Shown: piece after piece, positions 22,027 to 36,813 of the stretch
Layout: every line of letters begins with the position of its first letter
Position numbering within the stretch: the stretch's first letter is position 1
NCBI GenBank assembly: GCA_002841625.1
Contig: PHAG01000012.1
Location: 1-64,000, forward strand
Length of the DNA: 64,000 nucleotides
Source of the DNA: Firmicutes bacterium HGW-Firmicutes-1
GTDB taxonomy: Bacteria; Bacillota; Clostridia; Lachnospirales; Vallitaleaceae
Direction: 5' to 3'
Position numbers and translations under genes: made by a program
The notes under the pieces: model-generated
Told to the model about the DNA's origin: nothing
Database searches by the model: none
Seen by the model: only the letters and a program-made list of their open reading frames with translations

Positions 22027-22032
22027 TTTATT

Positions 22033-22225: not shown

Positions 22226-22957
22226 ATGAAATTCTACTTCGCTTTATGTGATGATGAAAAAGAACATTTGTTAATTTTACATGAAAAAATTGCGAATATT
22301 ATGGAAGAAAATGATTATGAAGTTATTGTTAACGGGTATGAATCAGGACAAGAACTTATTAATTGCATAAAAAACCGGATTAACAAGTATCACATTATAT
22401 TTCTAGACATACAAATGACGGAAACAAATGGCATAGAAACTGGTAAAAGAATTAGGGAGCTTAATAAAAATATAATCATTATTTACATTACGGGGTTTAT
22501 GGATTATTCGATAAATGCATTTGAGATAAGAGCATTCGATTATATACTTAAACCAATTAATACAAATAAATTAAAAAAAGCAATATTAGATGCTATTGTT
22601 CGCATTGAATTATTTGAGAATCAGCAAAGGAATATAGAACAATTTCTTACATTAAGTTATAACAAAGAGATTCTTAATATAAGACTAGAAGATATTATTT
22701 ACATAGAGAAGATTAAAAATAAGAGCATTATTATATGTGGTGAAGAAAAATATGAAGTGTATGATAGCTTATGTAATATTAAAAAGAAATTAAATGAAAA
22801 CATATTTATTCAACCACATCAAGGATATATAATTAATAAGAATAAAATAAACCACTATAAAAACCAGCAGCTTACACTTACCTCCAAATATATAGTACCA
22901 GTGAGTAAAAACAATATAAATACTATAAGAAAAGCTTTTTTTGAAAGTTTAAGGTGA
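22226..22957 (+). CDS. agrA: AgrA-like response regulator (REC-LytTR)
   Basis: A 243-residue regulator. The receiver domain (1-125) has the acidic pair in LCDDEKEH, the phospho-acceptor Asp in IIFLDIQM and Lys in DYILKPI. The LytTR DNA-binding domain (140-243) includes LEDIIYIEKIKNKSIII and FIQPHQGYIINKNKI. Proteins of this type activate promoters with paired short direct repeats after phosphorylation by AgrC. It is followed three to six bases later by the kinase gene, and AgrB/AgrD lie ~3 kb downstream, so it should be the regulator of this locus. Confidence 0.9.
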   Translation: MKFYFALCDDEKEHLLILHEKIANIMEENDYEVIVNGYESGQELINCIKNRINKYHIIFLDIQMTETNGIETGKRIRELNKNIIIIYITGFMDYSINAFEIRAFDYILKPINTNKLKKAILDAIVRIELFENQQRNIEQFLTLSYNKEILNIRLEDIIYIEKIKNKSIIICGEEKYEVYDSLCNIKKKLNENIFIQPHQGYIINKNKINHYKNQQLTLTSKYIVPVSKNNINTIRKAFFESLR

Positions 22958-22963
22958 TGTTTG

Positions 22964-24274
22964 ATGGATATGATTTGGGAGTTTATTAATTTTACAGTAA
23001 ATATAGTAGAAACAGTAATTATTTTTAAATATGTGGAGACGTTTTTTGTAAAAAAGTATACTGAAAATAAAAATTGGATATGGATTACTATAATAAGCAT
23101 TTTATCATATTCGATATGCAATATTAGTGAAAACTTTTTATGGAAGTTTATGCTATACATTATTATACTGTTATTTGTTGTTATCTTATTTGAAGGAAAC
23201 ATTGGCAAGAAATTGGTAGTATGGCTTAGTTTGTTAATTGGTGTAATTGCTATTGAAAATATTGCTGTACTTATATTAATGGTACTTTTTAATCAACCAG
23301 TAATAGTTTTTATAGATAATACTATCTTTCGTCTGGTTGCTATTTTAATTTCAAAAATCTCTCTATATTTCTTAATCTTAGGGTATGTAAATCGAAAAGA
23401 GCATAGATTATTAGAAGTAAAAAATAAGTCGTTTGTCGTGACCTTAGTAGCTTTGTTTTTTGTGAATATAATAGTAATTATGGTATTGGTGTTAATGGTT
23501 TATAAGAAAGTTAATACTCAAGATAATTTAATGAATATAATGGTGTTCAGTTGTGCAATGATTTGCATATTAGCAATTTGCATTTATGAAAGTATGCTGA
23601 AACAAAATAATGAGCAAATGGATATTCGGTTACTTAGCCAACAAAAAGATTTGCAATATAAATATGTTAATGCTATCGAAACTTCGATAGATGAAATGAA
23701 ACGTATAAAGCATGATTTTTCTAATCATATGATGTGCATCATGGGGTATCTTGAGACTAATAAATACAGTGATCTAAAGAAATATTTAACAAAGCTATTT
23801 AATCCTATAGAAAATACTGATGAGATTATTGTTACTGGTCATCCTGTTATTTCTTCTATGATATACTCAAAGATCATAGAAGCTAAGAAAGGAAATATTA
23901 AGATAAAATTGGCAACTAGTTTTGAGTCATTAATAAATATTGAAGATATAGATTTATGCATTCTTATTGGAAACATATTAGACAACGCTATTGAGGCATG
24001 CATGCATGTTGAAGAAGATAAAAGAGAAATCATGCTATGTATTCAAACAAAATGCGATTGGTTCTTAATTGATTGTATAAATAGAACGAAGAATCAAATT
24101 TTTGTAAGAAAAGGAAGCATTATAAAGACAAGCAAAGAAGATAAGGTAAACCATGGAATAGGTTTGAGAAATGTTGAGTCAATAGTCAAAAAACATAAAG
24201 GGGAAATAGCTATTGATATAATTGAAGGAAATTATATTATTAAAGTAACTATGATTAATGATTACGTCAATTGA
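22964..24274 (+). CDS. agrC: AgrC-like GHKL sensor histidine kinase
   Basis: A 436-residue membrane kinase. Residues 1-215 hold about six or seven membrane segments forming the peptide sensor. The cytoplasmic part has the H-box MKRIKHDFSNHMMCIMGYLE, the N-box GNILDNAIEAC, and the G-box NHGIGLRNVESIVKKHKGEI of the GHKL/AgrC type. It senses an extracellular autoinducer peptide and phosphorylates AgrA. The start at 22964 follows AAGGTGATG and lies seven bases after the agrA stop. A T-rich terminator follows. Confidence 0.9.
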   Translation: MDMIWEFINFTVNIVETVIIFKYVETFFVKKYTENKNWIWITIISILSYSICNISENFLWKFMLYIIILLFVVILFEGNIGKKLVVWLSLLIGVIAIENIAVLILMVLFNQPVIVFIDNTIFRLVAILISKISLYFLILGYVNRKEHRLLEVKNKSFVVTLVALFFVNIIVIMVLVLMVYKKVNTQDNLMNIMVFSCAMICILAICIYESMLKQNNEQMDIRLLSQQKDLQYKYVNAIETSIDEMKRIKHDFSNHMMCIMGYLETNKYSDLKKYLTKLFNPIENTDEIIVTGHPVISSMIYSKIIEAKKGNIKIKLATSFESLINIEDIDLCILIGNILDNAIEACMHVEEDKREIMLCIQTKCDWFLIDCINRTKNQIFVRKGSIIKTSKEDKVNHGIGLRNVESIVKKHKGEIAIDIIEGNYIIKVTMINDYVN

Positions 24275-24316
24275 AACTTTTGTCATAAATCAGCTAATCA
24301 TCATGAGTTGAAGTCC

Positions 24317-24350
24317 AATCACCACATGGTGATTGTTTTTTTTTGTTTTT
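24317..24350 (+). terminator. Terminator after agrC
   Basis: The stem AATCACCA-CA-TGGTGATT is followed by a long T-run. It separates agrAC from the genes that follow, so those need their own promoter, plausibly the AgrA target. Confidence 0.9.
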
Positions 24351-24450
24351 TTTAATAAAATGCATTTAGAGTAAATAAAAGAAGGGACTAGTAGTAACTT
24401 CAGTTATGTAATATAAATTAGCCATTTTATAAAATAGGAGGTGAAATAGT

Positions 24451-25593
24451 TTGAATATTAACTTATCTGTTCCAATGGTTTATGAAGAAGATTATGTTAA
24501 GAAGATAATAGAGCTAAACAAGAACAGAAAAAAAATTACTACAAAAATATATGAAGTATATGGTTCGCTGAAAGAAGATATTATTGGCAATTTGAGACCT
24601 GCTGAAACACTAAAAGATGTCAGCAAAGAAAAAATGAAAGAACTAATTGATGTTTTGCACAGTAATAATATCAAGTTTAATTATACTATGAATGCTACGG
24701 TTTCTGATGGGCGTGAATATAGTTCTGGGGGAAGAAAGGAAATACTTAAGTTTATTGATTCGTTAATTAGAATAGGAATTGATAGCTTTACAATTACATC
24801 TCCATATTTAATTAGATTGATAAAAGAACATTTTAAAGATGCGAATATTACAGCATCAATATGTAATGAAATTGATACTGTGCAAAAGGCGAAACAGTTT
24901 GAAGATATTGGTGTTAGCTGTATTGTTTTAAATAGAGATATTAATAGAGATTTTAAAATGCTTAAATCAATTAAAGAAAAGAATAATTGTGACATAAAAG
25001 TATTATGTACAACACCATGTATATATAGATGTATGGATGTTTACTATCATTCAAATTTATCATCAACTATGTCAAACGAATTGAAAAAAGCAATGAAGAT
25101 TTCTACTAAAGAGTTTTCACATACATCTGTTAATTGTTTGTATAAAAAAATAAATAATTTATATGAAAATATCAAATCGCCATGGATAAGACCAGAAGAT
25201 ATGAAATACTATGCTGAAATCGGAATAAACTATTTCAAAATTGATGGAAGAGATAAAACAGCTGAATATAATCTTGATGTTATAAAATCATATCTGGATG
25301 AATGTTTCGAAGGTAACCTGCTATATTTGATGAATGATGGGTATCCAAAAGATATGATCCAAATTGCAAATAAGTTAGATGTTGCTTATTTAAAAATGGG
25401 AATCAATAATAGTTCTTTAAATTCTTTTTTACAACCATTTGTTAATGGAAGCATGAATTGCAGAGATGGATGTGATATTTGTAAATATTGTGAAAAAATT
25501 GCGGAAAAAGAAGTTAAAGTAAATGAAGAATGGAGAGATATATTTTTGCAATATTTAAAGTGCGAAAATAGAAGGAGATTAGAAGCTAATTAA
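24451..25593 (+). CDS. U32-type (UbiU/UbiV-like) Fe-S protein
   Basis: A 380-residue protein of the U32 'peptidase' superfamily, a TIM barrel with a Cys-ligated 4Fe-4S cluster. It includes GIDSFTITSPYLIRLIKEHF and DIGVSCIVLNRDINRD, then Cys at CTTPCIYRCMD, and a C-terminal CRDGCDICKYC cluster. Known relatives (UbiU/V, RlhA, TrhP) hydroxylate ubiquinone precursors or RNA without oxygen. A hydroxylation of a cluster intermediate or of the cluster tRNA is possible but inferred. It starts at TTG 24451, seven bases after AGGAGGTG. It is the first gene after the agrC terminator. Confidence 0.7.
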   Translation: MNINLSVPMVYEEDYVKKIIELNKNRKKITTKIYEVYGSLKEDIIGNLRPAETLKDVSKEKMKELIDVLHSNNIKFNYTMNATVSDGREYSSGGRKEILKFIDSLIRIGIDSFTITSPYLIRLIKEHFKDANITASICNEIDTVQKAKQFEDIGVSCIVLNRDINRDFKMLKSIKEKNNCDIKVLCTTPCIYRCMDVYYHSNLSSTMSNELKKAMKISTKEFSHTSVNCLYKKINNLYENIKSPWIRPEDMKYYAEIGINYFKIDGRDKTAEYNLDVIKSYLDECFEGNLLYLMNDGYPKDMIQIANKLDVAYLKMGINNSSLNSFLQPFVNGSMNCRDGCDICKYCEKIAEKEVKVNEEWRDIFLQYLKCENRRRLEAN

Positions 25594-25729
25594 TATATCT
25601 CAAATTCACATCTAAGAAAAACAATGCTATCTTTGTTAAACGGATAAACTACATAAGATATACAAGATATAACGGCTATTAAAAAAACATGTATTGTATT
25701 GTTACTTAATTTAAATGAGGGGTAGGAAT

Positions 25730-25939
25730 ATGAAATTTACATTTGAAAGAACATTGAATGATGTATTGAATGATGATGATGCAAAGAAAATATTAGTTAA
25801 TCATTTAGGAGGATTAGTTGATGATCCAATAGTAGAAATGGTAAGAAGTAGAACATTGAAAGAAGTTGTAATGATGGCGGGGAGCTTGATTCCAGAGGAT
25901 ATAATCAAGTTAATTGAAAAAGAGTTAAACGATTTATAG
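25730..25939 (+). CDS. Small acidic helical protein of unknown function
   Basis: 69 residues, predicted wholly helical, with LNDVLNDDDAKKILVNHLGG in the first half and LIPEDIIKLIEKELNDL at the end. There is no Cys, signal peptide or membrane segment, and no carrier-type DSL motif. From memory the spacing resembles a short helical module at the ends of some secreted enzymes; this is untested. ATG 25730 is preferred because GAGGGG stands six bases upstream; an ATG at 25715 overlaps that site. It lies between the U32 gene and agrB. It could be a scaffold, a carrier or a second precursor. Confidence 0.6.
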   Translation: MKFTFERTLNDVLNDDDAKKILVNHLGGLVDDPIVEMVRSRTLKEVVMMAGSLIPEDIIKLIEKELNDL

Positions 25940-26062
25940 TAAAAAAATTAGTTCCAAAATGATATATGTTATTTTGCTTGTTACTATATTACAATTGTCT
26001 AATGGAAATGTACTGTTTTGCTTTATTCTATAGGATTCTAAGAAAATGAGAGAAGGACAATA

Positions 26063-26644
26063 ATGATTTCAAATATTTCAAGTAAATTAGCTATAGTTAT
26101 GTATAAAAATAACAACAAACAAATTGCTGATATAGAGGTTTACAAATACGGTCTAGAGTTGATGATATCTTCTATAGTAAATATGTTAGTAATGATTGGA
26201 TTATCATTAGCATTAAGTTGTTTTAAAGAAGCTATATTATATATTTTGTTTTTTGCAATTCTAAGAATTTCAGCTGGTGGATATCATGCATCTACTCATT
26301 TTAAATGCTTACTTTTGTACTCATTAATTATGTTTCCAATAATTCGTTTTATAGAAATTTTAAAAGTTGGATTAAATAGTCATTTTGTATTACTAGTGTG
26401 TTGTGTATCGATTTTTTGTGTATTTAGATATGCTCCTGTTGATTCGGAAAATAAGCCTTTGAATAAGAAAGAATATTATTTATTTAAGAAGAGTAGCAGA
26501 AATACCGTTTTAATTCAATCAACGATATTAATTCTATTAGTATTGTTAATAAATGACATATTTATTTACATATTGAGTTGTTCCGCAGGAATGTTTGTTG
26601 AATCCATTACCTTATTACCAATATTAAATCGAAGAAGGAGTTGA
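26063..26644 (+). CDS. agrB: AgrB, autoinducer-peptide processing membrane protease
   Basis: A 193-residue integral membrane Cys protease with about five membrane helices. The signature ISAGGYHASTHFKC carries catalytic His75 and Cys82, seven residues apart as in S. aureus AgrB (77 and 84). AgrB cuts the C-terminal tail off AgrD and closes the thiolactone ring. The stop overlaps the ribosome binding site of the small agrD gene, three bases downstream. Confidence 0.95.
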   Translation: MISNISSKLAIVMYKNNNKQIADIEVYKYGLELMISSIVNMLVMIGLSLALSCFKEAILYILFFAILRISAGGYHASTHFKCLLLYSLIMFPIIRFIEILKVGLNSHFVLLVCCVSIFCVFRYAPVDSENKPLNKKEYYLFKKSSRNTVLIQSTILILLVLLINDIFIYILSCSAGMFVESITLLPILNRRRS

Positions 26645-26646
26645 AA

Positions 26647-26799
26647 ATGAATATGAGATTAAAGAAATACAATGTAAAAATTTGGGCTCAATTAAGTTTG
26701 ATTGTAGTAACTATAGCGGATATGAGCTTATCGACCTGTTGTTTATGGTTATTAAACCAGCCTATATTACCAGAACAGCTAAAGAATAATAGATTGTAG
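26647..26799 (+). CDS. agrD: AgrD, autoinducer-peptide precursor (50 aa)
   Basis: A 50-residue peptide directly after agrB, with GAAGGAG upstream. An amphipathic N-terminal leader (residues 1-27) is followed by the signal region STCCLWLL and an acidic/polar tail NQPILPEQL. Counting from the second Cys (Cys32), Pro at +10 and Leu at +13 match S. aureus AgrD, so Cys32 should form a five-residue thiolactone ring Cys-Leu-Trp-Leu-Leu with an exocyclic tail of unknown length. The Cys-Cys pair is unusual. The gene is short and easily missed. Confidence 0.88.
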   Translation: MNMRLKKYNVKIWAQLSLIVVTIADMSLSTCCLWLLNQPILPEQLKNNRL

Positions 26800-26859
26800 G
26801 ATTCAAAAGAAAAGTTGATAAAAGAGAAGGATTAATGTATTTACAAGGGAGAAATTAAT

Positions 26860-28029
26860 ATGATAAAAGAAAGACTAGAGTTTATTCCTTTAACAAAGCT
26901 TGAATATTTAGATGATTTGGTATATCAAAATAACGATTATTTTAATTATGATATTGAAGTAATACAAAAACTGCAGTTTGGCTTTATTAAGCAGGCATAC
27001 ACACATCATTATAAAGTCAATAAAGATTTTAGAAATTATTCAAATAGGAGGGGTGTTAAACCAGACGACATAAAAAAACATGAGGATTTAATTAAAATAC
27101 CATTAATACCAAGCAGTATTTTTAAACTTAAAATAGTTAAAAGCTGCAATGAAAATGAAATTATAAAGGTTTGTACAAGCTCTGGAACAAAAGGATCCAT
27201 TAGTAAGGTTTATAGGGATGAGGTCACGTTAAATAGATTTTTAGGTGCAATGCAGACTGTCATTGATAATACTTTAGGCTTGGATGATGTCTTTTGTATT
27301 AATTTAGGCCCTTCAACAGAAGAAGCTGGTGATTTGTGGTTTTCCTATGTATTAAGTTTAATGGATATGGTATTTCCGATGGAGAATTTCATAGTTGACG
27401 GTAATTTTTATCCTCAAAAGGTTGTGGATCAAGTATGTGATGTCGTAGACAGATTTGAAAATATTGTCATCATAGGAGCTCCTATTATGTTTATTGAATT
27501 AATGAAGCATATGGAAGATCATGATATTAAAATCGATAAGTGTAAGTCAATTATGTTTATTACTGCTGGAGGTTGGAAACGTGCCTCGGGGCAAGCGATT
27601 TCTAAGAAAGAATTTTGTGAGCAATTAAAAAAATATTTTATTGGTATGAGTGAAGAGAATTCTAGAGACATATTTAATATGGTTGAGCTAAATACAATTT
27701 TTTGTGAATGTAATAAAAAGATTAAGCATTCTCCGCCATGGGTAAAAATATATATTATCGATCCTTTTACGTTAGAGCTTGTAAAGGATGGAGAAGTTGG
27801 TTTGATAGCTTATTTAGATCCGACAGCAGTAAGTTTTCCTTGTTTTATATTGACAGATGATGTTGGTAAGATTTCATTAAATGGACAATGTGAATGTGGT
27901 CGAACTGGACAAGGTCTTGAAATTATAAGGAGAGTAGAAAGTAAAGAATCCAGGGGTTGTGCTTTGAAAATTGATAAAAGATATTCCACTGAATATTATA
28001 AAGGAGGAGCTAATGGTACGAAGTTTTAA
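26860..28029 (+). CDS. luxE: LuxE-like acyl-protein synthetase
   Basis: 389 residues, close in length to Vibrio LuxE (~375). LuxE activates a fatty acid as acyl-AMP and holds it on a Cys before LuxC reduces it to aldehyde. Matching blocks are IPLIPSSIFKLKIVKS, CTSSGTKGSISKVYRD (ATP-binding), MFITAGGWKR, FNMVELNTIFCEC, and a C-terminal ESRGCALK whose Cys367 fits the acyl-accepting Cys364 of V. harveyi LuxE (LRGCSD). The start follows AAGGGAG. It overlaps luxD by 17 bases. No luciferase genes are in the window. Confidence 0.9.
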   Translation: MIKERLEFIPLTKLEYLDDLVYQNNDYFNYDIEVIQKLQFGFIKQAYTHHYKVNKDFRNYSNRRGVKPDDIKKHEDLIKIPLIPSSIFKLKIVKSCNENEIIKVCTSSGTKGSISKVYRDEVTLNRFLGAMQTVIDNTLGLDDVFCINLGPSTEEAGDLWFSYVLSLMDMVFPMENFIVDGNFYPQKVVDQVCDVVDRFENIVIIGAPIMFIELMKHMEDHDIKIDKCKSIMFITAGGWKRASGQAISKKEFCEQLKKYFIGMSEENSRDIFNMVELNTIFCECNKKIKHSPPWVKIYIIDPFTLELVKDGEVGLIAYLDPTAVSFPCFILTDDVGKISLNGQCECGRTGQGLEIIRRVESKESRGCALKIDKRYSTEYYKGGANGTKF

Positions 28030-28927
28030 TGAAAGAATTATTAATATAAAAACGAAAAATGGTGACGTCATACATAGCGTTTATAATTATTTCAAAGAGA
28101 ATACACCACTTATTATAATACCACCTCAATTTGAAAAAACTATCAGAACAAATTTAACCTTAATGATTTATTTAATAAATAACGGATTTAATGTACTGAG
28201 ATATGATAATAGATACCATAATGGAAACAGTACAGGAGATATAGAGGACTATAATTTGAAAACAGCATTAGAAGATCTAGAAATAGTTATTCAATATGTT
28301 AAATCTGATTCTAGTATTTATAATAATAATGGTATAGGACTTTTAGGTGTGAGTATAACAAGCCGTATCATATACAGATATCTGAGTGATAGTGTTAAGG
28401 ATATTGATGTTTTTTTAACATTAGTTGGTGTTGTAAATATGCAGTATACGCTGAATTCAATAATCGGCTTTGATATTGTTGATGAGGTGATTAAAGAGCC
28501 GAAAAAAATATGGGGAACTAGAAAAGTTATAAAGTATCCCGTCAATTGGGATAATTTCATAAAAATTCTAATTAACGAAAATATGCACAATTTGGAAACC
28601 GCTAATGAAGATATTCAAAAGATTAAAACACCGATTTATATTATTGCATCTGAAGATGATAAATGGGTTGATATTGAAGAATACGAAAAAGCATTTATTA
28701 CAAATAAAGAAATACTTAAAGGCGTTTACAAGCTTCCAGGTGCAGGACATGAATTATATAAAAATCCTGAGGCTGCAAAATTTGCGGCAGAACAGATTGT
28801 AAAAGTGTTTCAAGAATTTTGGGGCATTGAATCTGAACAACATATTATAAAACCAACAATAACAGACATTATAGCACACAATAAAAAGGAACGTGTTAGG
28901 GAGAAACAATATGAAAACGTAGGTTGA
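28013..28927 (+). CDS. luxD: LuxD-like acyl transferase/thioesterase (alpha/beta hydrolase)
   Basis: 304 residues, the length of Vibrio LuxD. LuxD takes an acyl group from acyl-ACP and releases fatty acid for LuxE. The region VLRYDNRYHNGNSTGDI and then GVVNMQYTLNSIIGFD are specific to LuxD (V. harveyi: GVVNLRYSLERALGFD). The nucleophile Ser114 in GVSITSR falls at the same residue number as in V. harveyi, and GAGHE gives the His. ATG 28013 is chosen because AAAGGAGGAG precedes it; it overlaps luxE, so the pair is coupled. Confidence 0.9.
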   Translation: MVRSFNERIINIKTKNGDVIHSVYNYFKENTPLIIIPPQFEKTIRTNLTLMIYLINNGFNVLRYDNRYHNGNSTGDIEDYNLKTALEDLEIVIQYVKSDSSIYNNNGIGLLGVSITSRIIYRYLSDSVKDIDVFLTLVGVVNMQYTLNSIIGFDIVDEVIKEPKKIWGTRKVIKYPVNWDNFIKILINENMHNLETANEDIQKIKTPIYIIASEDDKWVDIEEYEKAFITNKEILKGVYKLPGAGHELYKNPEAAKFAAEQIVKVFQEFWGIESEQHIIKPTITDIIAHNKKERVREKQYENVG

Positions 28928-28966
28928 TAAAGTCAACTTTTACAATTTATGAGGAGGAAATTAAAG

Positions 28967-30025
28967 ATGGTTATTGCATTAAAAGAAGAAACAAATCTGA
29001 TTACACCCAAAAAGAGTTGGAATGATCTAAAATTTCATTATTTATCAGTCATTGAAGATCCCTGGTATAAATCTGTAATGGATTTGCAGCATTTAATATC
29101 TTACTATACCTATATGTTTTATGAACAAAGAAATTTGAAAACTTTACATTTACCAATTACAACAAGCTCAATATCTAGTCCTATGGGATTAGGTAGCGAT
29201 TCAACGCCTGTAAAAGTAAATATATGTGATGTTGATACATATCTTGCAGATTCTATGCAATTTATGCTTGAGTATGGATGTAGAATTTATGAAGAAGGCT
29301 GCTTTTATATCATGCCTTCTTTTAGAGGAGAAGTAGCAGACGAAAGACATTTATGCCAGTTCTATCATAGTGAAGCAGAAATAATAGGTGGCCTTGATGA
29401 TGTAATAGCTTTAATAGAGGATTACGTTAAGTATTTATGTGAGAAACTTATAGAAAGCTATGAAGAAAAGTTATTAAAAGTAGCTGGAACTGTAGAGCAT
29501 ATAAGAGAAATATTAGCGGTAGTTGATGGATTTCCACGCATTACCTTACAAGAAGCAATAAAATTACTTGACAAAAAATATTCTAACTCTCTAAAACCGC
29601 TATATATCAAACACCCTGAAGGATTTACTATATTAACGAACTATGGTGAGAAAAAACTGATAGAGTTATTTGGAGGGATTGTATGGGTTACTCACTTTGA
29701 GCATTTGTCATTACCTTTCTACCAAGCATTCTCGGATAAAGAACAAAAATATGCATTAAATGCAGATTTATTATTTGGTATAGGAGAAGTCATTGGGGCA
29801 GGAGAAAGACATAAAGATTACGAAAAAGTGAAAAAAGCATTAAAAATTCACCAAGTAGAGGAACAGGAATATGAATGGTATTGTAATATGAAAAAGAAGT
29901 ATCCTATGCAAACTGCTGGTTTTGGGATGGGTGTTGAAAGATTTATATTATGGATATTACAACATGATGATATAAGAGATTGCCAAGTCCTTCCAAGATT
30001 TAATGGTATTAATTGTTTGCCATAA
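28967..30025 (+). CDS. AsnRS-related class II synthetase core without anticodon-binding domain
   Basis: 352 residues, beginning directly in a class II aminoacyl-tRNA synthetase catalytic core of the Asn/Asp type. TSSISSPMGLGSDSTPV precedes a flipping-loop-like region, motif 2 is PSFRGEVADERHLCQFYHSE (conserved FRxE), and motif 3 is GFGMGVERFILWILQHDDIRD with the conserved ER. The ~110-residue OB-fold that binds the anticodon in true AsnRS/AspRS is missing. Archaeal AS-AR, an asparagine synthetase derived from AsnRS, has the same architecture. So it probably activates Asp/Asn or a related acid without tRNA, perhaps to form an amide. ATG 28967 follows GAGGAGG. Confidence 0.8.
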   Translation: MVIALKEETNLITPKKSWNDLKFHYLSVIEDPWYKSVMDLQHLISYYTYMFYEQRNLKTLHLPITTSSISSPMGLGSDSTPVKVNICDVDTYLADSMQFMLEYGCRIYEEGCFYIMPSFRGEVADERHLCQFYHSEAEIIGGLDDVIALIEDYVKYLCEKLIESYEEKLLKVAGTVEHIREILAVVDGFPRITLQEAIKLLDKKYSNSLKPLYIKHPEGFTILTNYGEKKLIELFGGIVWVTHFEHLSLPFYQAFSDKEQKYALNADLLFGIGEVIGAGERHKDYEKVKKALKIHQVEEQEYEWYCNMKKKYPMQTAGFGMGVERFILWILQHDDIRDCQVLPRFNGINCLP

Positions 30026-30056
30026 ATTAGAAATAGTCATAATTTATATAATCTTA

Positions 30057-30117
30057 ATTGGTGAATAGTAGCATAAAAATGATTATGAAACAGGAAAATC
30101 ACTTACTATTCACCAAT
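30057..30117. repeat. Perfect 14-bp inverted repeat upstream of the tRNA
   Basis: ATTGGTGAATAGTA (30057-30070) is inverted at TACTATTCACCAAT (30104-30117), with a 33-base loop. It lies between the synthetase stop and the tRNA 5' end, with no T-run on the plus strand. It could be a processing or stability hairpin, or a regulator site. Confidence 0.7.
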
Positions 30118-30136
30118 GAAAAGATATTGTTTGTTT

Positions 30137-30208
30137 TGCGGTGTAGCTCAATTGAAGAGCACTTGGTTCATTCCCAGGAAGATATTGGTTCAAATCCAGT
30201 CACCGTAA
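30137..30208 (+). tRNA. Divergent tRNA with CAU (Met) anticodon
   Basis: 72 nt folding as a cloverleaf. Acceptor TGCGGTG/CACCGTA pairs 7 of 7 with one G-U; D stem GCTC/GAGC; anticodon stem CTTGG/CCAGG with loop TTCATTC (anticodon CAU); five-base variable region; T stem ATTGG/CCAGT with canonical loop TTCAAAT; discriminator A. It resembles elongator tRNA-Met. Departures: the D loop (AATTGAA) lacks the G18-G19 pair, position 37 is T instead of a purine, the first pair is T-A, and no CCA is encoded. It is embedded in a locus with two MetRS paralogues. Confidence 0.75.
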
Positions 30209-30251
30209 CTCGTACGGTATAATATTAACGGTAAACAAGGTGGGTATTTAT

Positions 30252-32438
30252 ATGAAAAACATAAATTGTGTTGATATTATAGAGATAGATTCTGAAGTAT
30301 TATTACCATTTGCTTATTATTTAGCAGGGATGTATAAAAATCTAACATTTAATTCAGCGGTACCTTCCTTAAATACACAGCATACAAAATTGATAAAAGA
30401 AAGCCTGGATTTTTTAGGAATAGAGTATCAAACGGTAATGTTACAAGACAAAATAGAGCCAGTTGAATGGGATAAATTGTGTAATAAAATGTGTGATTCT
30501 ATACTCCATAATTTGATTGAAGTATATAAAGAACTTTATCCAAATCAGTTATTAGACTTAGAGGTAACTAAAGTAAAACATGAGGATTTAAAGGATCAAC
30601 CTATAATTGTGGGAATTACCGAGCAGGGTTTAGAACAAGCACTAAAAGGGGGTATTTTATTAGGAAGAACTGTAGTATATATTAATAAATTAAATGCCAT
30701 AGCGGACTTTTTTGAAATATCAAAAATGGCTTCCTCAACTATATTATGTTTTGATGAAGAATTTGAAGTTCAGCAAATGAAGTTCATCTTGGATCAGAAG
30801 ACAAAAGCAAAAAATTTAGTCCCTATAGGCTTTATGTATCCTTTTGGTCAATTGAATAGAGAAAATGTAATAACTAAAGCATTTATTTTTAATACCTATA
30901 GAAAAAAAGCAAAACTATTTAACTTTTACTATCCCTTAGAAAAGCAAAATGCATCCTTTAAGTCTGAAAAGTTTAATTTTTTTATTGGTAACACTCAGGA
31001 AGAAATAAAGGATTATATATTAAAGGAAGCCGAGTTTACGTTTGCAACACCACATTCAAACGGTGTAGATATGTCTATTGGTAACGTTGTATTGTGTGCT
31101 AAGAAAGACTATATAAAGGAGGAAGAAGATGAAATAAACAGGGTGATGCCATGCTTTTATTCTGATAGTTGTAATAGACTATCTCAAAATCGTTATTATA
31201 TAGGTGCAAGTGAGATAAAAAGTAAAATACTTTTTTTATATACCTGTTGGGGGATTGTTTTGAAAAATGGTATATATGATGTGCGAACAACACTTGCTTA
31301 TCAATTTGCTAAGTCAGTCTATTCACCCATTCTTATAACAACGTATGCTATGTCCTTACTTGACAGATATGCAGGACCTTATATTGTGGATTTGTATTGT
31401 ATGGGGAAAAAAATAGGAGAAGCGATTGAATCATACAATAATAAGCATTATGAAAAATATATGGATTTGAATAACGTAGTTGTTTTATTTGGAGATCCAG
31501 AATTTAAACTTGAGATAAGCTCTGTAATTAATTTCAATGCGATTTTAACTGAAACGAAAAAATTAAGTGACTTTTTTCGCGAAGAAAACACAGGAAAACT
31601 TTGTTTTCATTTATTTGATAAAAATTTCTTTAATAACTTGGATTTTACAGATTATGTATTAAATGGGACTGCTTCATTGGGAATGAAGTATATACAGGAA
31701 GATATTGATGTGTTGAGAGAAAAAGTGAGAAATCTAAGAATGAATGCATCGCTGTTAAATAACCGTATGATGCAATCTAAACAATTTGTATACGATTATG
31801 ATAAAAGTATTAAACAATTGAGTGTAGCCTATAAAGGTTTTCAAGTAGCATGGTATGAATTTTATAAAACCATGGTTAATAATTTGGGTGGATATATTAG
31901 ATTTCAAGTGGATAGATATTTTTCGATGCCTGAGGAAGACAAAGAAGGTTTGCATAGGGAATGTCCATATTGTAAAACTTGTGTAAAAATAGAGAAAAAA
32001 GAACTGCAACCACACGGTTTGAAACGAAGACTAATAGAGTGTTTTAATTGTGCAACTATATTCGATGGGCTCGATTCGTTTTTATGGGGTGAAATAAAAT
32101 GTGAGGAGGAATGGCGGCAAGGCAGTATGGTTAAAGTTTCTGTAGAGGCTTATACAAAAATGAGTGGTGAATATTGTTATTTAATAGGGCTTATCGTTGA
32201 ACCGTTTGATAAAAAGAAAGGATTAAATATGCCTGCAACTTTTAAAAAGGGAAAGATTGACTTGGGAAAAATGGACTTAAATATATGCTTAGATGAGCTT
32301 TACATATACGATTATATAGATTTAGGTTGTTATCATTTAAATTGTATTATACTAGTAAATGAAAAAATTGTTTTTTTGAGACGACCTATATATATTACAA
32401 GGGGGAATAAAGAAGATGATGAAAAGTCAATATTGTAG
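30252..32438 (+). CDS. Large protein with clan-CD-like (caspase fold) peptidase signatures and a zinc ribbon
   Basis: 728 residues, no family recognised with certainty. The middle part shows the clan CD pattern of C25/CHAT-type Cys peptidases: His268 in ATPHSNGVD, then a hydrophobic strand ending in Cys332 (KILFLYTCWG), then YQFAKSVYSPILITTYA and VVLFGDPEFKL, which resembles the end of C25 domains. Residues ~570-610 form a zinc ribbon (CPYC and CFNC pairs). A coiled segment lies between. If the reading is right, it could cut the leader from a peptide precursor. ATG 30252 follows AAGGTGGG; its end overlaps the YcaO gene by 23 bases. Confidence 0.5.
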   Translation: MKNINCVDIIEIDSEVLLPFAYYLAGMYKNLTFNSAVPSLNTQHTKLIKESLDFLGIEYQTVMLQDKIEPVEWDKLCNKMCDSILHNLIEVYKELYPNQLLDLEVTKVKHEDLKDQPIIVGITEQGLEQALKGGILLGRTVVYINKLNAIADFFEISKMASSTILCFDEEFEVQQMKFILDQKTKAKNLVPIGFMYPFGQLNRENVITKAFIFNTYRKKAKLFNFYYPLEKQNASFKSEKFNFFIGNTQEEIKDYILKEAEFTFATPHSNGVDMSIGNVVLCAKKDYIKEEEDEINRVMPCFYSDSCNRLSQNRYYIGASEIKSKILFLYTCWGIVLKNGIYDVRTTLAYQFAKSVYSPILITTYAMSLLDRYAGPYIVDLYCMGKKIGEAIESYNNKHYEKYMDLNNVVVLFGDPEFKLEISSVINFNAILTETKKLSDFFREENTGKLCFHLFDKNFFNNLDFTDYVLNGTASLGMKYIQEDIDVLREKVRNLRMNASLLNNRMMQSKQFVYDYDKSIKQLSVAYKGFQVAWYEFYKTMVNNLGGYIRFQVDRYFSMPEEDKEGLHRECPYCKTCVKIEKKELQPHGLKRRLIECFNCATIFDGLDSFLWGEIKCEEEWRQGSMVKVSVEAYTKMSGEYCYLIGLIVEPFDKKKGLNMPATFKKGKIDLGKMDLNICLDELYIYDYIDLGCYHLNCIILVNEKIVFLRRPIYITRGNKEDDEKSIL

Positions 32439-34677
32439 CTTAGCTAAAATAATATATGAAGCAGAAATGGGTAAAGTCTGTGTTATAGAAAAAATGGGTC
32501 ATACAAAGAATGAAGTTTATAAAGTTATAGGTGAGGATAATGAAAAATACTTGATTAAGTTATTTCTCAATGAAGGAGATTTAGATATAAAAAACTGTGA
32601 GCTTATTATGTATGAGGTGTTAGGAAGCGTAGGGTATTTGAAGAAATGCTTTAAAAAGGATTTTAACTCAAAGACATATAATATAAGTTATGTTATAACA
32701 GAATACTTGGAGGGAAGAACTCTATTAGAGGTTATTGAAAAGGAGCATTACTCAGAGGAACAATTAAAGAAATATGTTAAACAAATTTATGAATATATTC
32801 AATTTTGTAGGGATATAGAGACAAAAGGCGTTGGTAATATAAATGAGAAGTTGATTGGTGAAGATAATAATTGGTTTAACTTCATGATTAAGTTCCTAGA
32901 TAACTGTTATGAAAGAACAAAAGGATTAAAACCCTGTGATAATGCCACAACTCTTATAGATATAAATTGTTTCTTGAGAAAATATTTAATTCAAAACAAG
33001 GTGTATTTTGAAAATATTATTCCTTCATTGATACCGATTGATTTAAATTTATCTAATTTTTTAATTAAGGATAATGATGAAGTAGTCGTTTTAGATGTAG
33101 ATGCTTTTTGGTCAGGAGATTGCTTTTTGGCAATGGGAGAGTTTATTGGACATATTTATGGAACTCATATTTTTAACTATTTTATTGAGTTATGGTCTGA
33201 TGTATACAAGAAAAACGCAAGATATCTGCATTTTTATGCGCTTTTGAGCAATTATTCTGTGTTGACCTTCTTGTCTAATAATGACATACATAATTTGCAT
33301 AATTATAAGCCATGGGGGAATAAATGTACCTTTTTTGATTTGATTCATTCTCATAGGTACATAGTTGATAATGAAGCTATAAATATCTTGAATATACTAA
33401 AAAACAATCCTTATTTAAATAATGATTGGGGAAAGAAAGTTGAAATGGCTTGTGATAGAGAGGTAGAAATAAAGGAAACTTTATCAAACATAGAACGAAT
33501 ATCAAGTAAAGCTGGGATTACAAGAGTTCCAGAAATAACAGGATTGGATTCTACGGGCATTTTCGCATACCAGTGCATTCGACCAGATGCTGAAAAAAAC
33601 GATGGAACCTTTACTGTATTTTCAGGAAAAGGGACTAGCGAAGAGCAGTGTAAGGTATCTGCTATCGTTGAAGGAATTGAACGATTTTGTGCAGAGAAAA
33701 GAAACTATCACAATGAAATTAAAGTAGCAACTTACGAAGAGATGATAAAAGAGCATAAGGTGATTCATCCTAAAGAGTTTAATTGTCCTAATTCTGTTAA
33801 TTTTTCTGAACAGGAAGTTTTAGAGTGGATACCAGCCCAGGATATTATTTCTGGTAAATGTTATTATATAACTGCAAATGTTGGATTTTATCCATATACA
33901 CCTAATTATGGAAGAATGCTATTTAGATATTTTACAACAGGCTTAGCCGGAGGAAATACTTATAGTGAAGCAATATCCCATGGTATTGCAGAAGCAATAG
34001 AAAGGGATGCGGCTGCCTTGAATTTGTTATTAAGAAATTATCCAGTTCTTATTAAGGATACTGTTACCAGCAAAAATGCGAGGGTAATTATTGAAAAAAT
34101 ACAGAACTCAAAATCGAGTTTAAATCTGATTATAAGATATATTACAACAATAGACATTAATGTCCCTGTTTTTTCAGTCATAATTGAAGATAAAGATATA
34201 GAAGATCCTTTGTTTATTAGTGGAGGCTATGGTGCACATCCCAATAAAGAAATTGCGTTAATAAATGCTTTAAACGAAGCAGCACTTTCAAGAGTAAGTA
34301 CAATCAGCGGTTCAAGAGAGGATCTTGAAAAGTTTAGAAAGGCTAAAGAAAATAAAGATTATGCTACCTTTAAACAAAAATATAATTATTGGTTCTCTAC
34401 TCAAGAACAAATTTCTTACGATGAAATTGAAGATTATAAATCTATTTTTTTAATGGAAGACATTGGATATATGTGTGATTGCTTAAAAAATGCGGGGTTG
34501 GAGAAAGTATTAATGGTAGATTTGTCGAACCCAGATATTCGTTTCCCTGTCGTTAAAATGCTTATCCCGGGAATTGAAAGATACTCATATGAAAGAGTTT
34601 GTATTGGTACTAGAGCAAAAATGTATTATAACTTAGTACATAATAAAAATACAAATAATAGTATTGTAAAGGCTTAA
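32416..34677 (+). CDS. ycaO: Aminoglycoside-phosphotransferase-like domain fused to YcaO
   Basis: 753 residues. Residues ~1-300 look like an APH/choline-kinase fold: a Lys strand (KYLIKLFL), then IPIDLNLSNFLIKDNDEVVVLDVDAF as catalytic and metal loops (the usual HGD is IDL here, so activity is doubtful). Residues ~355-753 are YcaO: GITRVPEITGLDSTGI, SGKGTSEEQCKVSAIVEGIERF and SEAISHGIAEAIERDAA supply the ATP-binding acidic residues. The C-terminus lacks the Pro-rich PxPxP end of azoline-forming YcaO proteins, as expected for TfuA-dependent, thioamide-forming ones. YcaO phosphorylates a backbone amide for attack by sulfide. A kinase-YcaO fusion is unusual. Confidence 0.85.
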   Translation: MMKSQYCSLAKIIYEAEMGKVCVIEKMGHTKNEVYKVIGEDNEKYLIKLFLNEGDLDIKNCELIMYEVLGSVGYLKKCFKKDFNSKTYNISYVITEYLEGRTLLEVIEKEHYSEEQLKKYVKQIYEYIQFCRDIETKGVGNINEKLIGEDNNWFNFMIKFLDNCYERTKGLKPCDNATTLIDINCFLRKYLIQNKVYFENIIPSLIPIDLNLSNFLIKDNDEVVVLDVDAFWSGDCFLAMGEFIGHIYGTHIFNYFIELWSDVYKKNARYLHFYALLSNYSVLTFLSNNDIHNLHNYKPWGNKCTFFDLIHSHRYIVDNEAINILNILKNNPYLNNDWGKKVEMACDREVEIKETLSNIERISSKAGITRVPEITGLDSTGIFAYQCIRPDAEKNDGTFTVFSGKGTSEEQCKVSAIVEGIERFCAEKRNYHNEIKVATYEEMIKEHKVIHPKEFNCPNSVNFSEQEVLEWIPAQDIISGKCYYITANVGFYPYTPNYGRMLFRYFTTGLAGGNTYSEAISHGIAEAIERDAAALNLLLRNYPVLIKDTVTSKNARVIIEKIQNSKSSLNLIIRYITTIDINVPVFSVIIEDKDIEDPLFISGGYGAHPNKEIALINALNEAALSRVSTISGSREDLEKFRKAKENKDYATFKQKYNYWFSTQEQISYDEIEDYKSIFLMEDIGYMCDCLKNAGLEKVLMVDLSNPDIRFPVVKMLIPGIERYSYERVCIGTRAKMYYNLVHNKNTNNSIVKA

Positions 34678-34708
34678 AACAAATGATGTGAAAGGGGGTG
34701 TTGACAAG

Positions 34709-34846
34709 GTGAGTATTGAGAATAAAGAGGATAAATCAACAAAAGAAGATAATAAGGAGAATATTGAATACTTTGAACTTAATGAGGGATTAGACGAAAT
34801 TTTTGACGAATTTGAAGTAGGGCCAGAAACCGCATTGATGTGGTGA
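34709..34846 (+). CDS. Candidate precursor peptide (45 aa)
   Basis: A GTG-started 45-residue frame, eight bases after AAAGGGGGTG, directly downstream of the YcaO gene and 27 bases before the methyltransferase. It is highly acidic. Residues 1-18 are a Lys/Glu/Asp/Asn-rich start, then IEYFELNEGLDEIFDEFE looks like a helical leader recognised by a modification enzyme, and the short C-terminus is VGPETALMW. There is no Cys or signal peptide. Position, size and composition fit a ribosomal peptide precursor with a core in the last ~9 residues. No homologue was recognised, so its function is inferred from context. Confidence 0.65.
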   Translation: MSIENKEDKSTKEDNKENIEYFELNEGLDEIFDEFEVGPETALMW

Positions 34847-34873
34847 AAATAATTATCTTAAGGAGAATTAATT

Positions 34874-35731
34874 ATGATTTTACAAGAGTATTTAGCAGAG
34901 GATATTAAAAAAATGGATTACAATCAGTTAATAGGCTTGGTAAAGGAAACCAATAGACCACCTGGGGGTTTTAACAGTATAAAATTGTTGGCATTAAGTG
35001 CATTTTTAACACCCAATAGCAGGGTGCTTGAAATAGGAACAAGTACGGGGATAACCTCAATTGAATTAGCCAAACTTGTAGGCTGTAAAATTAAGGCGAT
35101 TGATATCAATCCAGTTAGTATTGAAGAAGCAAAGAAAAGAGCCAAGGCCGAAGGTGTTGATAACTTAATAGAATTTGAAGTTCAAGATGCAACAAATACA
35201 ACCTTTCCTGACAACTTCTTTGATATGGTTTTCTGTGGGAATGTAACCTCTCTCATTGAACAGAGAGAAAAGGCTTTTGCTGAATATATTCGTGTGCTTA
35301 AGAAAAATGGTTTTATAGCGGCCATTCCTATGTATTACATAAAAAAACCATCTAAAGAATTAATTGAAGACGTATCAGCTGCAATACAAGTTAATATTAT
35401 CCCCTGGGATAGAAAGTATTGGTTTGAATTCTTTAAGGACGAAAAAATAGAATTATGTTGGTATGAAAATTATCAATTTGATACTATTAAGACTGAAGAT
35501 GTTCATGCTTTTTCGGATGAAATATTAAAAAGAGACCATCTAAAGTGTTTGAAATTGGAGGCTTATGAAGTGCTTAAGAAAAAATATAGAGAGTTTATGA
35601 TGCTATTTAGGGATAATTTAAGTCATATGGGTTACAGTTTAATGTTAATCAGAAAAACACAATATGAAGTGGATAATGAACTTTTCACATCAAGCATCAT
35701 TACTGATGATAATCAAGTATATGGTTATTAA
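34874..35731 (+). CDS. SAM-dependent class I methyltransferase
   Basis: 285 residues. SAM-binding motif I is VLEIGTSTGITSIELAK, motif II/acidic ribose contact is KIKAIDINP, and DNFFDMVFCGNVTSL plus YIRVLKKNGFIAAIP complete the Rossmann methyltransferase core (residues ~40-165). The C-terminal ~110 residues are variable and should give substrate choice. AAGGAG precedes the ATG. Its place between the candidate precursor and the DHH gene suggests tailoring of the product; the atom methylated is unknown. Confidence 0.85.
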   Translation: MILQEYLAEDIKKMDYNQLIGLVKETNRPPGGFNSIKLLALSAFLTPNSRVLEIGTSTGITSIELAKLVGCKIKAIDINPVSIEEAKKRAKAEGVDNLIEFEVQDATNTTFPDNFFDMVFCGNVTSLIEQREKAFAEYIRVLKKNGFIAAIPMYYIKKPSKELIEDVSAAIQVNIIPWDRKYWFEFFKDEKIELCWYENYQFDTIKTEDVHAFSDEILKRDHLKCLKLEAYEVLKKKYREFMMLFRDNLSHMGYSLMLIRKTQYEVDNELFTSSIITDDNQVYGY

Positions 35732-35749
35732 TTAATAGGGAGGTATATG

Positions 35750-36739
35750 ATGCGTGAGGTATGTATTATATCCCATTCTGGAGATCCAGATGGCATTTTT
35801 TCACAGGCACTTTTGTTAAAGCATACAAGAAACGCAGTTTCTCGTATTCATAGTTTTATGATTGAAAATGATGAAATCATCCAACTCCTAAAGCGTGATG
35901 AAATAAGAAATTGTAGTGAATTGTATATTGCAGATTTGCCGCTAAATGAAGCGGCTATAACTGATAGTGAATTATTAGAATTATTGTCAGATAAAGATTT
36001 ATATTATTATGATCACCATTATTTGAGCAACAGTAGAGACAATCTTTTGAAGAATATTTGCAAAGTTTACTTGAGAGAAGAGGCAGTTTGTGCAGCTAAA
36101 ATTATCTCTCGAGTTCTTTTTCCATTAGAGCCATATCCCGAATTTGTATCTGAAATAGCACAAGCTTGTGATTTTAATATTATAAATGACAGGTTTTGGG
36201 TAGGCCAGAAATTAAGAAGAATAATAAGCGTAATATCAATTGATGAAAGAGATGAACTTGTAGATGATATTATTCGAGGAACATGGTTTGACGGAATGAA
36301 TCTTCATGAAAAATATGTGGCTAAAGAAAGTGAAGCTAATAAGTTGGAAAAGGCTGCGATTATGTTTATGAATGAAATGACAGAATTATTTGAGATTAAA
36401 GATTACAAATTTGCGATTTCATATGCATCACAAATTTTATACATGAAGCCTGGTCTAAGCAATTTAGCAGTATGCAATCCTCAATGTGATGCGGTCATTG
36501 TTTTATATGAGGGAAAGTCTGATGTATTATTAACAGCTGCATTAGGAATAAATGCAAATGCAATACCCATTTTGGAATATTGTGTTTATAAAGGAGGTGG
36601 AGGTAGAAATAACGCAGGAGGATATAAGTTAGAAAAAGAAAAAATAATAAGTCGTGAAAACTATCTAGAAATCAAGAACCATATTATAAAGGATTTTACA
36701 GAGTATTTAAAAACAATTGAATTTGAATATAATTATTAA
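35750..36739 (+). CDS. DHH/DHHA1 family phosphoesterase
   Basis: 329 residues with the DHH metal-dependent phosphoesterase signature: SHSGDPDGIFSQ (DxD motif, with Ser/Gly altered from HxDxDG), ADLP, YYDHH (the DHH motif), and a DHHA1 substrate domain ending in GGGGRNNAGGYKL. Family members cleave nanoRNA, pAp or cyclic dinucleotides with Mn. The altered first motif (HSGDPDG) keeps both Asp. In this locus it may clear AMP-type by-products or hydrolyse a nucleotide intermediate, an inference. The start at 35750 gives better spacing to GGGAGG than the ATG at 35747. Confidence 0.82.
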   Translation: MREVCIISHSGDPDGIFSQALLLKHTRNAVSRIHSFMIENDEIIQLLKRDEIRNCSELYIADLPLNEAAITDSELLELLSDKDLYYYDHHYLSNSRDNLLKNICKVYLREEAVCAAKIISRVLFPLEPYPEFVSEIAQACDFNIINDRFWVGQKLRRIISVISIDERDELVDDIIRGTWFDGMNLHEKYVAKESEANKLEKAAIMFMNEMTELFEIKDYKFAISYASQILYMKPGLSNLAVCNPQCDAVIVLYEGKSDVLLTAALGINANAIPILEYCVYKGGGGRNNAGGYKLEKEKIISRENYLEIKNHIIKDFTEYLKTIEFEYNY

Positions 36740-36813
36740 TTATAACCGTATTTAAAGTAAGTTTATGATTGTACATAAGAGGTTTCTAATGATATAAATT
36801 ATAGGAGAAGAAA

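What the first reader, a model, noticed from the sequence alone, without database searches (positions are those of the whole stretch)
28967..30025. AsnRS core without anticodon domain (AS-AR-like) in a peptide locus
Motifs 2 and 3 are intact, and the OB-fold is missing. In archaea such a protein makes free asparagine. In this locus it may amidate or activate an acid group of the product or its precursor, for example Asp/Glu side chains of the acidic peptide.
Basis: partly seen in the sequence, partly recalled or inferred. Interest (0 to 1): 0.7.

Follow-up and report, generated by a model that had tools for sequence, protein, structure and literature searches.

The report
AgnA-type synthetase in a MetRS-inhibitor cluster
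The truncated asparaginyl-tRNA synthetase is an intact relative of the enzyme that helps build the antibiotic agrocin 84, and it sits in a mobile gene cluster that appears to make a peptide-linked mimic of activated methionine, complete with its own methionine tRNA, spare methionyl-tRNA synthetases and microcin-type immunity genes.

Summary
ORF 28949-30025 is an intact class II aaRS core (motifs 2 and 3 complete) without an OB fold, and the window's contig has no separate OB-fold gene. The AS-AR label fails: the protein scores 83 bits against a 368-bit cut-off, keeps AsnRS-type pocket residues instead of AspRS/AS-AR ones, and lies in a separate clade with AgnA of agrocin 84 (100/100). Of 89 loci with this enzyme, 69 hold an MccF-like S66 peptidase, 63 an MccD-like/SAM transferase and at least 44 an extra aaRS homologue, so it is a module for aminoacyl-nucleotide inhibitors. 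Here the extra aaRSs are two MetRS paralogues; the genome has a normal MetRS elsewhere. Most of the gene set recurs in Paenibacillus, Legionella, Vibrio and Photobacterium with an acidic precursor ending GPETAL plus two or three residues, YcaO-TfuA-ThiS-ThiF genes and an unnamed 732-aa protein. Two of the clusters carry an odd tRNA-Met (U37-C38). Best model: the AgnA-like enzyme makes the P-N nucleotide, a degenerate MetRS adds Met from the dedicated tRNA, and the product inhibits MetRS. Homology and context are shown; the chemistry is inferred. AgnA is known; this RiPP/tRNA-Met hybrid was not found in the literature searched.

The parts
28949..30025 (+). AgnA-type OB-less AsnRS core (the finding)
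   Evidence: Pfam tRNA-synt_2 1.3e-36; AgnA clade 100/100 and active-site table; AF2 pLDDT 92.3, AsnRS 1x54 Z 37.7 vs AS-AR Z 30
30051..30125 (+). strong hairpin between AgnA and the tRNA
   Evidence: MFE -20.6 kcal/mol, z -5.4
30137..30209 (+). cluster-borne tRNA-Met (CAT), unusual U37-C38
   Evidence: ARAGORN, Rfam tRNA 55.9 bits; 76% to the L013 cluster tRNA, 57-69% to the genome's own CAT tRNAs
30240..32438 (+). unnamed 732-aa protein; invariant His (PHSNG), Cys (TCWG) and CxxC...CxxC zinc-ribbon-like site; caspase/CHAT-like peptidase guessed
   Evidence: no Pfam family; 4-row alignment; AF2 failed; found only in the five related clusters
32416..34677 (+). kinase-like N domain fused to YcaO (thioamidation type)
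   Evidence: YcaO 5.5e-66, methan_mark_1 2.7e-84 and TIGR00702 over cut-off; the N domain is a separate ORF in L065/L069; 'kinase-like' is by eye, no family or PDB match
34709..34846 (+). RiPP precursor MSIENKEDKSTKEDNKENIEYFELNEGLDEIFDEFEVGPETALMW (GTG start after AAAGGGGG)
   Evidence: GPETAL 8-9 codons before the stop in all 5 clusters and nowhere else in about 4 million six-frame residues
34874..35731 (+). MccD-like SAM-dependent transferase
   Evidence: best PDB hit MccD 5fcd 7.4e-24, next 1.5e-11; homologues in 63/89 AgnA loci
35747..36739 (+). DHH phosphoesterase-like protein
   Evidence: weak Pfam DHH 1.1e-4, under its cut-off; 33% relative in L013
26860..28029 (+). LuxE-like acyl-protein synthetase
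   Evidence: Pfam LuxE 1.1e-68; also in L042 and L020
27971..28927 (+). LuxD-like acyltransferase
   Evidence: Pfam Acyl_transf_2 1.5e-26
36814..38298 (+). LuxC-like acyl reductase
   Evidence: Pfam LuxC 5.8e-77; also in L042 and L023
39226..39426 (+). ThiS-like sulfur carrier ending GG
   Evidence: NCBIfam thiS 63.6 bits over cut-off 37.45
39360..40229 (+). ThiF/MoeB-type E1 enzyme (the N terminus of the ORF overlaps thiS; true start probably after 39426)
   Evidence: Pfam ThiF 7.7e-74; MoeB subfamily 279 bits over cut-off 266
40272..41750 (+). divergent MetRS (HIGH -> HMAS, KMSKS lost): proposed Met-tRNA-dependent transferase
   Evidence: Pfam tRNA-synt_1g; motifs degenerate in 4/4 relatives; 49% homologue in the Paenibacillus cluster
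41740..42732 (+). S66 peptidase, MccF-like immunity
   Evidence: Pfam S66 N and C domains; best PDB hits MccF-like 1.6e-56, MccF 104 bits, LdcA 82 bits; 69/89 AgnA loci
42800..44359 (+). second MetRS with canonical HLGH and KISKS: immunity and/or charging of the cluster tRNA
   Evidence: PRK12267 619 bits over cut-off 598; housekeeping MetRS elsewhere at C10, 45%
44347..45057 (+). TfuA, YcaO partner for thioamides
   Evidence: Pfam TfuA 1e-40
22226..24274 (+). LytTR response regulator and AgrC-like kinase, probable quorum control
   Evidence: Pfam for the regulator; the kinase by sequence and adjacency
26063..26799 (+). AgrB and AgrD-like signal peptide gene (26641-26799)
   Evidence: Pfam AgrB 6.1e-35; AgrD by eye
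21450..45574 (.). genomic island bounded by tRNA-Gly repeats (21450-21562; 45478-45574; intact copy 48342-48454)
   Evidence: direct repeats; GC 0.26-0.32 inside, mostly 0.31-0.39 outside

Best explanation
The protein is an AgnA-type synthetase: a class II AsnRS catalytic core that no longer serves translation but builds the nucleotide half of a non-hydrolysable aminoacyl-adenylate mimic. In the favoured model it uses ATP and a carboxamide (its AsnRS-type pocket residues are kept) to form a P-N bond on an adenosine nucleotide. The cluster's canonical MetRS charges the cluster's own tRNA-Met. The MetRS paralogue with lost HIGH/KMSKS motifs transfers Met from that tRNA to the P-N nitrogen, as SbzA and AcmF do for sulfonamide and sulfamate nitrogens. 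The MccD-like enzyme alkylates the phosphate. A ribosomal peptide (...GPETALMW), modified by YcaO-TfuA with sulfur from ThiS/ThiF, is joined as carrier or shield. The product inhibits MetRS in competitors; the spare MetRS and the MccF-like S66 peptidase protect the producer. Shown here: the genes, their homologies, the shared cluster and the conserved precursor. Inferred: every chemical step and the target.
For: Clade: all 35 sampled AgnA-type proteins, including agrocin 84 AgnA and the window protein, are monophyletic at 100/100, apart from AsnRS, AspRS and AS-AR. Context: agrocin 84 agnA lies with the LeuRS agnB2 and an MccF-like gene; 51-53% relatives lie with AlaRS or LeuRS copies plus S66 plus SAM transferase. 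Census of 89 loci: S66 69, transferase 63, both 57, aaRS homologue at least 44. The window has MccD-like and MccF-like genes and two MetRS paralogues while a full-length MetRS lies elsewhere. Five clusters share the set, and MetRS paralogues occur in the Bacillota and Vibrionaceae ones. The tRNA-Met with U37-C38 is shared by two of them. Literature: AgnA as a truncated AsnRS, PMC4392301; AgnB2 immunity and the N-acyl phosphoramidate of TM84, PMC5059758; MccB/MccD/MccF roles, PMC12250964; AcmF and SbzA, PMC12945691.
Against: No assay of any enzyme of this clade appeared in the sources I could read; AgnA's own reaction is inferred there too. The precursor's C-terminal residues vary (MW, YW, FWQ, FFI) and contain Met only in the window, so how peptide and warhead are joined is unknown. 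The tRNA-Met is absent from the three gammaproteobacterial clusters. In the Legionella cluster no MetRS lies in the stretch held. The roles of LuxCDE, DHH and the 732-aa protein are unexplained. The aaRS census used a small hand-made reference set, and a few loci may count chromosomal neighbours.
Confidence: 0.6

Rival explanations
1. AS-AR-like: it makes free asparagine, or amidates an Asp/Glu side chain of the acidic precursor, from the carboxylate, ATP and ammonia.
For: Same OB-less class II core; structural similarity to AS-AR Z 30; NCBI names relatives 'asparagine synthetase A'; the precursor is rich in Asp/Glu.
Against: Outside the AS-AR clade and with AsnRS-type pocket residues (no Asp-type Lys; E142 where AS-AR has Asp) in 80/80 members; below the NF005052 cut-off; relatives occur beside aaRS-immunity genes in clusters without such a peptide.
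Confidence: 0.1
2. MccB-like use: it acts directly on the C terminus of the modified precursor or its fragment and joins it to AMP, so the peptide itself carries the P-N nucleotide; the MetRS genes are only immunity.
For: MccD-like and MccF-like genes and a ribosomal peptide are all here as in microcin C.
Against: The clade's other members work in clusters without this ribosomal precursor (agrocin 84, NRPS clusters); the C-terminal residues of the five precursors differ and are not Asn; it does not explain the degenerate MetRS and the tRNA.
Confidence: 0.2
3. Amino acid activator for a carrier: it adenylates an amino acid and loads it on the ThiS-like protein or another partner (as aminoacyl carrier protein ligases do), with no P-N bond in the product.
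For: Class II cores do this in other families (general knowledge); a small carrier-like protein, ThiS, is encoded in the cluster.
Against: ThiS has its own E1 beside it and belongs with YcaO/TfuA; among the AgnA loci the E1 was found only in the thio-type clusters.
Confidence: 0.08

Closest known systems
AgnA, agrocin 84 synthetase (pAgK84)
   Same: OB-less AsnRS core, 40% identity over 96%, same clade, next to an MccD-like transferase, MccF-like S66 and a duplicate aaRS
   Different: agrocin 84 has a LeuRS copy and a small-molecule warhead; no such ribosomal precursor, YcaO/TfuA or tRNA gene was found there
Archaeal asparagine synthetase A (AS-AR)
   Same: OB-less class II core, similar fold (Z 30)
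   Different: separate clade near AspRS, Asp-type pocket, passes NF005052 which the window protein does not
Microcin C clusters (MccA-F)
   Same: peptide plus nucleotide logic, MccD- and MccF-like genes
   Different: P-N bond made by MccB (ThiF fold) on a C-terminal Asn; target AspRS; here the ThiF protein is MoeB-like with ThiS
Thioamidated RiPPs (YcaO-TfuA)
   Same: YcaO of the thioamidation type plus TfuA plus precursor
   Different: kinase-like fusion, ThiS carrier, AgnA, MccD/F, MetRS and tRNA were not found in the published surveys I searched
SbzA and AcmF aaRS-like transferases (SB-203208, ascamycin)
   Same: aaRS paralogue with degenerate catalytic motifs beside a functional synthetase
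   Different: those use IleRS/AlaRS folds and sulfonamide/sulfamate nitrogens; here a MetRS fold and a cluster-borne tRNA

Membership tests
AgnA-type synthetases | AsnRS catalytic core without anticodon domain | tested here: met
AgnA-type synthetases | falls in the clade of agrocin 84 AgnA | tested here: met
   100/100 support, 35/35 rows
AgnA-type synthetases | neighbours: MccF-like S66, SAM transferase, extra aaRS | tested here: met
AgnA-type synthetases | forms the phosphoramidate P-N bond | not testable with these tools
   enzymology needed; inferred for AgnA itself
AS-AR (archaeal asparagine synthetase A) | curated model NF005052 above cut-off | tested here: not met
   83.5 vs 368 bits; Streptomyces AS-A 456.9
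AS-AR (archaeal asparagine synthetase A) | clade with 3p8t/1nnh and the Asp-type Lys/Asp pocket | tested here: not met
   AS-AR groups with AspRS 89/84; pocket L107/E142 instead of K/D
AsnRS | OB-fold anticodon domain | tested here: not met
Microcin C system | MccD-like and MccF-like genes | tested here: met
Microcin C system | MccB-type adenylyltransferase and precursor ending in Asn | tested here: not met
   ThiF is MoeB-type beside ThiS; precursor ends MW. The MccB RRE domain was not searched separately
YcaO-TfuA thioamidated RiPP | YcaO and TfuA plus precursor peptide | tested here: met
   TIGR00702 182.9 over cut-off 75.65; Pfam TfuA; precursor conserved in 5 clusters
YcaO-TfuA thioamidated RiPP | thioamide in the product | not testable with these tools
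   needs mass spectrometry
aaRS-like aminoacyl-tRNA-dependent transferases (SbzA/AcmF type) | aaRS paralogue with lost catalytic motifs beside a canonical synthetase | tested here: met
   MetRS-div H[MIF]AS and no KMSKS in 4/4; MetRS2 HLGH/KISKS
aaRS-like aminoacyl-tRNA-dependent transferases (SbzA/AcmF type) | transfers an aminoacyl group from tRNA | not testable with these tools
   needs an assay

The most novel reading that the evidence does not exclude
A natural-product cluster that carries its own non-translational tRNA-Met (U37-C38) with a matched MetRS, and a MetRS-derived transferase that moves Met from that tRNA onto a P-N nucleotide made by an AsnRS-derived enzyme, on or beside a thioamidated ribosomal peptide: a hybrid RiPP and aminoacyl-nucleotide antibiotic aimed at MetRS.
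Probability: 0.35. Interest if true: 0.92.

Novelty: new variant of a known kind. Interest (0 to 1): 0.8.

Why it matters
It turns one enzyme of one biocontrol antibiotic (AgnA) into a widespread family (187 confirmed relatives in one genome scan, best 80 analysed) whose neighbouring spare aaRS may predict the target. It gives a concrete candidate for a natural MetRS inhibitor. It joins three pathways not seen together in the literature searched: YcaO-TfuA peptides, AgnA/MccD/MccF nucleotide chemistry and a cluster-borne tRNA. It also shows that the 'asparagine synthetase A' name given to many of these proteins is probably wrong.

Tried and rejected
AS-AR function was rejected as above. A separately encoded OB fold was looked for genome-wide and none lies on the contig. 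Pseudogene was rejected (intact ORF, active-site columns kept). Structure of the 732-aa protein: AlphaFold2 with 4 sequences gave pLDDT 46, unusable, and Pfam gave only weak zinc-ribbon hits, so the caspase/CHAT-like reading rests on motifs seen by eye. The N-terminal domain of the YcaO fusion had no PDB relative by sequence. No close YcaO relative on plasmids. More copies of the cluster: none in 294 other genomes of the order (AgnA query), 298 others of the phylum, 39 other genomes of the Paenibacillus genus or 294 others of the Vibrio family with the queries used. Hidden tRNAs in the Legionella, Vibrio and Photobacterium clusters: none above noise. I first equated E108 with the AsnRS discriminator; numbering against T. 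thermophilus AsnRS places the recalled E225 at E142 and R368 at R287.

Full report
OBSERVATION. The ORF at 28949-30025 (+) is intact (358 aa) and matches the catalytic domain of Asp/Asn/Lys-tRNA synthetases from residue 27 to 350. The AlphaFold2 model from 80 sequences has mean pLDDT 92.3 and begins with the catalytic domain. The best solved structures are AsnRSs (1x54, Z 37.7, 2.0 A over 317 residues); AS-AR follows at Z 30. OB-fold anticodon domains occur at eight places in the genome, none on this contig.

WHAT IT IS. A search of plasmid records led to antibiotic loci. The 40% hit is agnA, 'Agrocin84-synthetase', on pAgK84. Relatives at 51-53% on Peribacillus, Exiguobacterium and Xenorhabdus plasmids each lie with an S66 peptidase, a SAM-dependent transferase and a spare AlaRS or LeuRS. 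A scan of 84,980 genomes found 187 relatives and kept the best 80. In 89 loci (these 80 and nine on plasmids) tblastn found S66 in 69, the transferase in 63, both in 57, and an aaRS homologue in at least 44. S66 genes are usually one or a few per genome (general knowledge), so 69 of 89 within about 20-30 kb is far above chance.

NOT AS-AR. In a maximum-likelihood tree of 53 catalytic domains all 35 AgnA-type proteins form one clade (100/100). AS-AR (3p8t, 1nnh and a Streptomyces AS-A) joins AspRS (89/84). At the pocket column where AspRS and AS-AR have Lys, the AgnA clade has Leu; where they have Asp, it has Glu (E142), as in AsnRS. E142 and R287 are invariant in 80 of 80; by numbering they match E225 and R368 of T. 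thermophilus AsnRS, which I recall as the asparagine-recognising pair (memory, not tested). The window protein scores 83.5 bits against the archaeal AS-A model whose cut-off is 368. The AgnA clade differs from AsnRS in the loop around the amino-acid site (TTGSISSPMGLGSDS; ADS for SQS), so the bound substrate is probably not free Asn held in the normal way (inference).

THE CLUSTER. Around the gene lie LuxE, LuxD, LuxC, a YcaO of the thioamidation type with a kinase-like N domain, TfuA, ThiS, a MoeB-type ThiF, an MccD-like transferase (best PDB hit MccD at 7.4e-24, next 1.5e-11), a DHH protein, an MccF-like S66 peptidase, two MetRS paralogues, and a 732-aa protein without a known family. The genome has another, full-length MetRS on contig 10. 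One MetRS paralogue is canonical (HLGH, KISKS); the other has H[MIF]AS for HIGH and no KMSKS, in the window and in three relatives.

FOUR RELATED CLUSTERS. Paenibacillus woosongensis (L013/L122), a Legionella MAG (L042), Vibrio ostreicida (L065) and Photobacterium galatheae (L069) share AgnA, the 732-aa protein, YcaO, TfuA, ThiF, a ThiS/MoaD-type carrier, the MccD-like transferase and S66. Paenibacillus even keeps the order MetRS-div, S66, MetRS2, TfuA. Cysteine-desulfurase-like class V aminotransferase genes sit in two of them, which would complete a sulfur relay to YcaO (inference). Each cluster has a small acidic ORF ending in GPETAL plus 2-3 residues: MW, YW, FFI, FWQ, FWQ. The hexapeptide occurs nowhere else in about 4 million six-frame residues of all held loci. 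The window precursor starts most plausibly at GTG 34709 after AAAGGGGG.

A tRNA IN THE CLUSTER. ARAGORN and Rfam find a tRNA-Met (CAT) at 30137-30209, between AgnA and the 732-aa protein, and one in the Paenibacillus cluster, also upstream of the 732-aa gene. They are 76% identical to each other and 57-69% to the window genome's own CAT tRNAs, and both read U37-C38 after the anticodon. Of 56 distinct tRNAs held, 53 have a purine at 37; the genome's other CAT tRNAs seen have A37. Both fold as cloverleaves. The CAT anticodon should let MetRS charge them, while U37 should make them poor in translation (inference). The three gammaproteobacterial clusters lack such a gene.

MECHANISM. TM84 (from agrocin 84) has an N-acyl phosphoramidate in place of the acyl phosphate of Leu-AMP, and the spare LeuRS AgnB2 gives immunity (PMC5059758). 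In microcin C the bond is made by MccB, the phosphate is alkylated by MccD/E, and MccF cleaves the toxin (PMC12250964). SbzA and AcmF are aaRS paralogues that move Ile or Ala from tRNA to a sulfonamide or sulfamate nitrogen, AcmF with a partner AlaRS and without ATP-site residues (PMC12945691). The window cluster has counterparts of all these parts: AgnA for the P-N bond, MccD and MccF, a canonical MetRS with its own tRNA, and a degenerate MetRS. The simplest reading is a Met-N-P-nucleotide aimed at MetRS, joined to or delivered by a modified peptide. Confidence: 0.75 that the enzyme serves the making of an aminoacyl-nucleotide inhibitor; 0.6 for the statement as a whole; lower for each single step.

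ISLAND. tRNA-Gly repeats at 21450-21562 and 45478-45574, with an intact copy at 48342, bound the cluster, whose GC (0.26-0.32) lies below most of the rest; with its patchy occurrence this argues for horizontal transfer.

NOVELTY. AgnA as a truncated AsnRS is published (Kim et al. 2006, via PMC4392301). I found no paper describing the family at large, an AgnA-YcaO hybrid or a cluster-borne tRNA-Met; only open-access papers were searched.

Noticed in passing
window 30137-30209; L013 3030-3105: tRNA-Met gene inside the cluster with U37-C38; shared by the window and Paenibacillus clusters.
   Followed up: yes
window 21450-21562, 45478-45574, 48342-48454: tRNA-Gly direct repeats bound the cluster: a genomic island with probable attachment sites.
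   Followed up: partly
window 22226-24274 and 26063-26799: Agr-type quorum sensing set (LytTR regulator, kinase, AgrB, AgrD-like ...STCCLWLLNQPILPEQLK) at the start of the cluster, probably its switch.
   Followed up: no
window 38430-38762: Truncated ECF-type ABC ATPase (110 aa), probably a remnant of a transporter.
   Followed up: no
window 24451-25593 and 25715-25939: U32-family protein and a 74-aa acidic protein without a family, between the regulators and AgrB.
   Followed up: no
L008 12923-22632: Streptomyces NBC_01707 plasmid locus with AgnA, SAM transferase, molybdopterin oxidase, ProRS-like protein, S66 and P450: looks like a phosmidosine-type cluster (8-oxoadenosine prolyl phosphoramidate), by gene content only.
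   Followed up: partly
L022, L037, L058: AgnA-type loci with S66, transferase and (L022, L037) HisZ-like proteins in Patescibacteria (Shapirobacteria, Woesebacteria, BroJett019), unusual for such small genomes.
   Followed up: no
L004, L005: AgnA loci with AlaRS plus a truncated AlaRS-related protein, resembling the AcmD/AcmF pair of ascamycin.
   Followed up: partly
L007 19729-20961: AgnC1 of agrocin 84, annotated hypothetical, is related to L063 14137-15390, which is weakly ProRS-like: agrocin 84 may have a second aaRS-like enzyme.
   Followed up: partly
L010 224-1198 and 13019-14074: One Streptomyces locus carries both a true AS-A (NF005052 over cut-off) and an AgnA-type protein, showing that they are different enzymes.
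   Followed up: yes
window 30051-30125: Very stable hairpin (z -5.4) just upstream of the cluster tRNA; terminator or processing site.
   Followed up: partly
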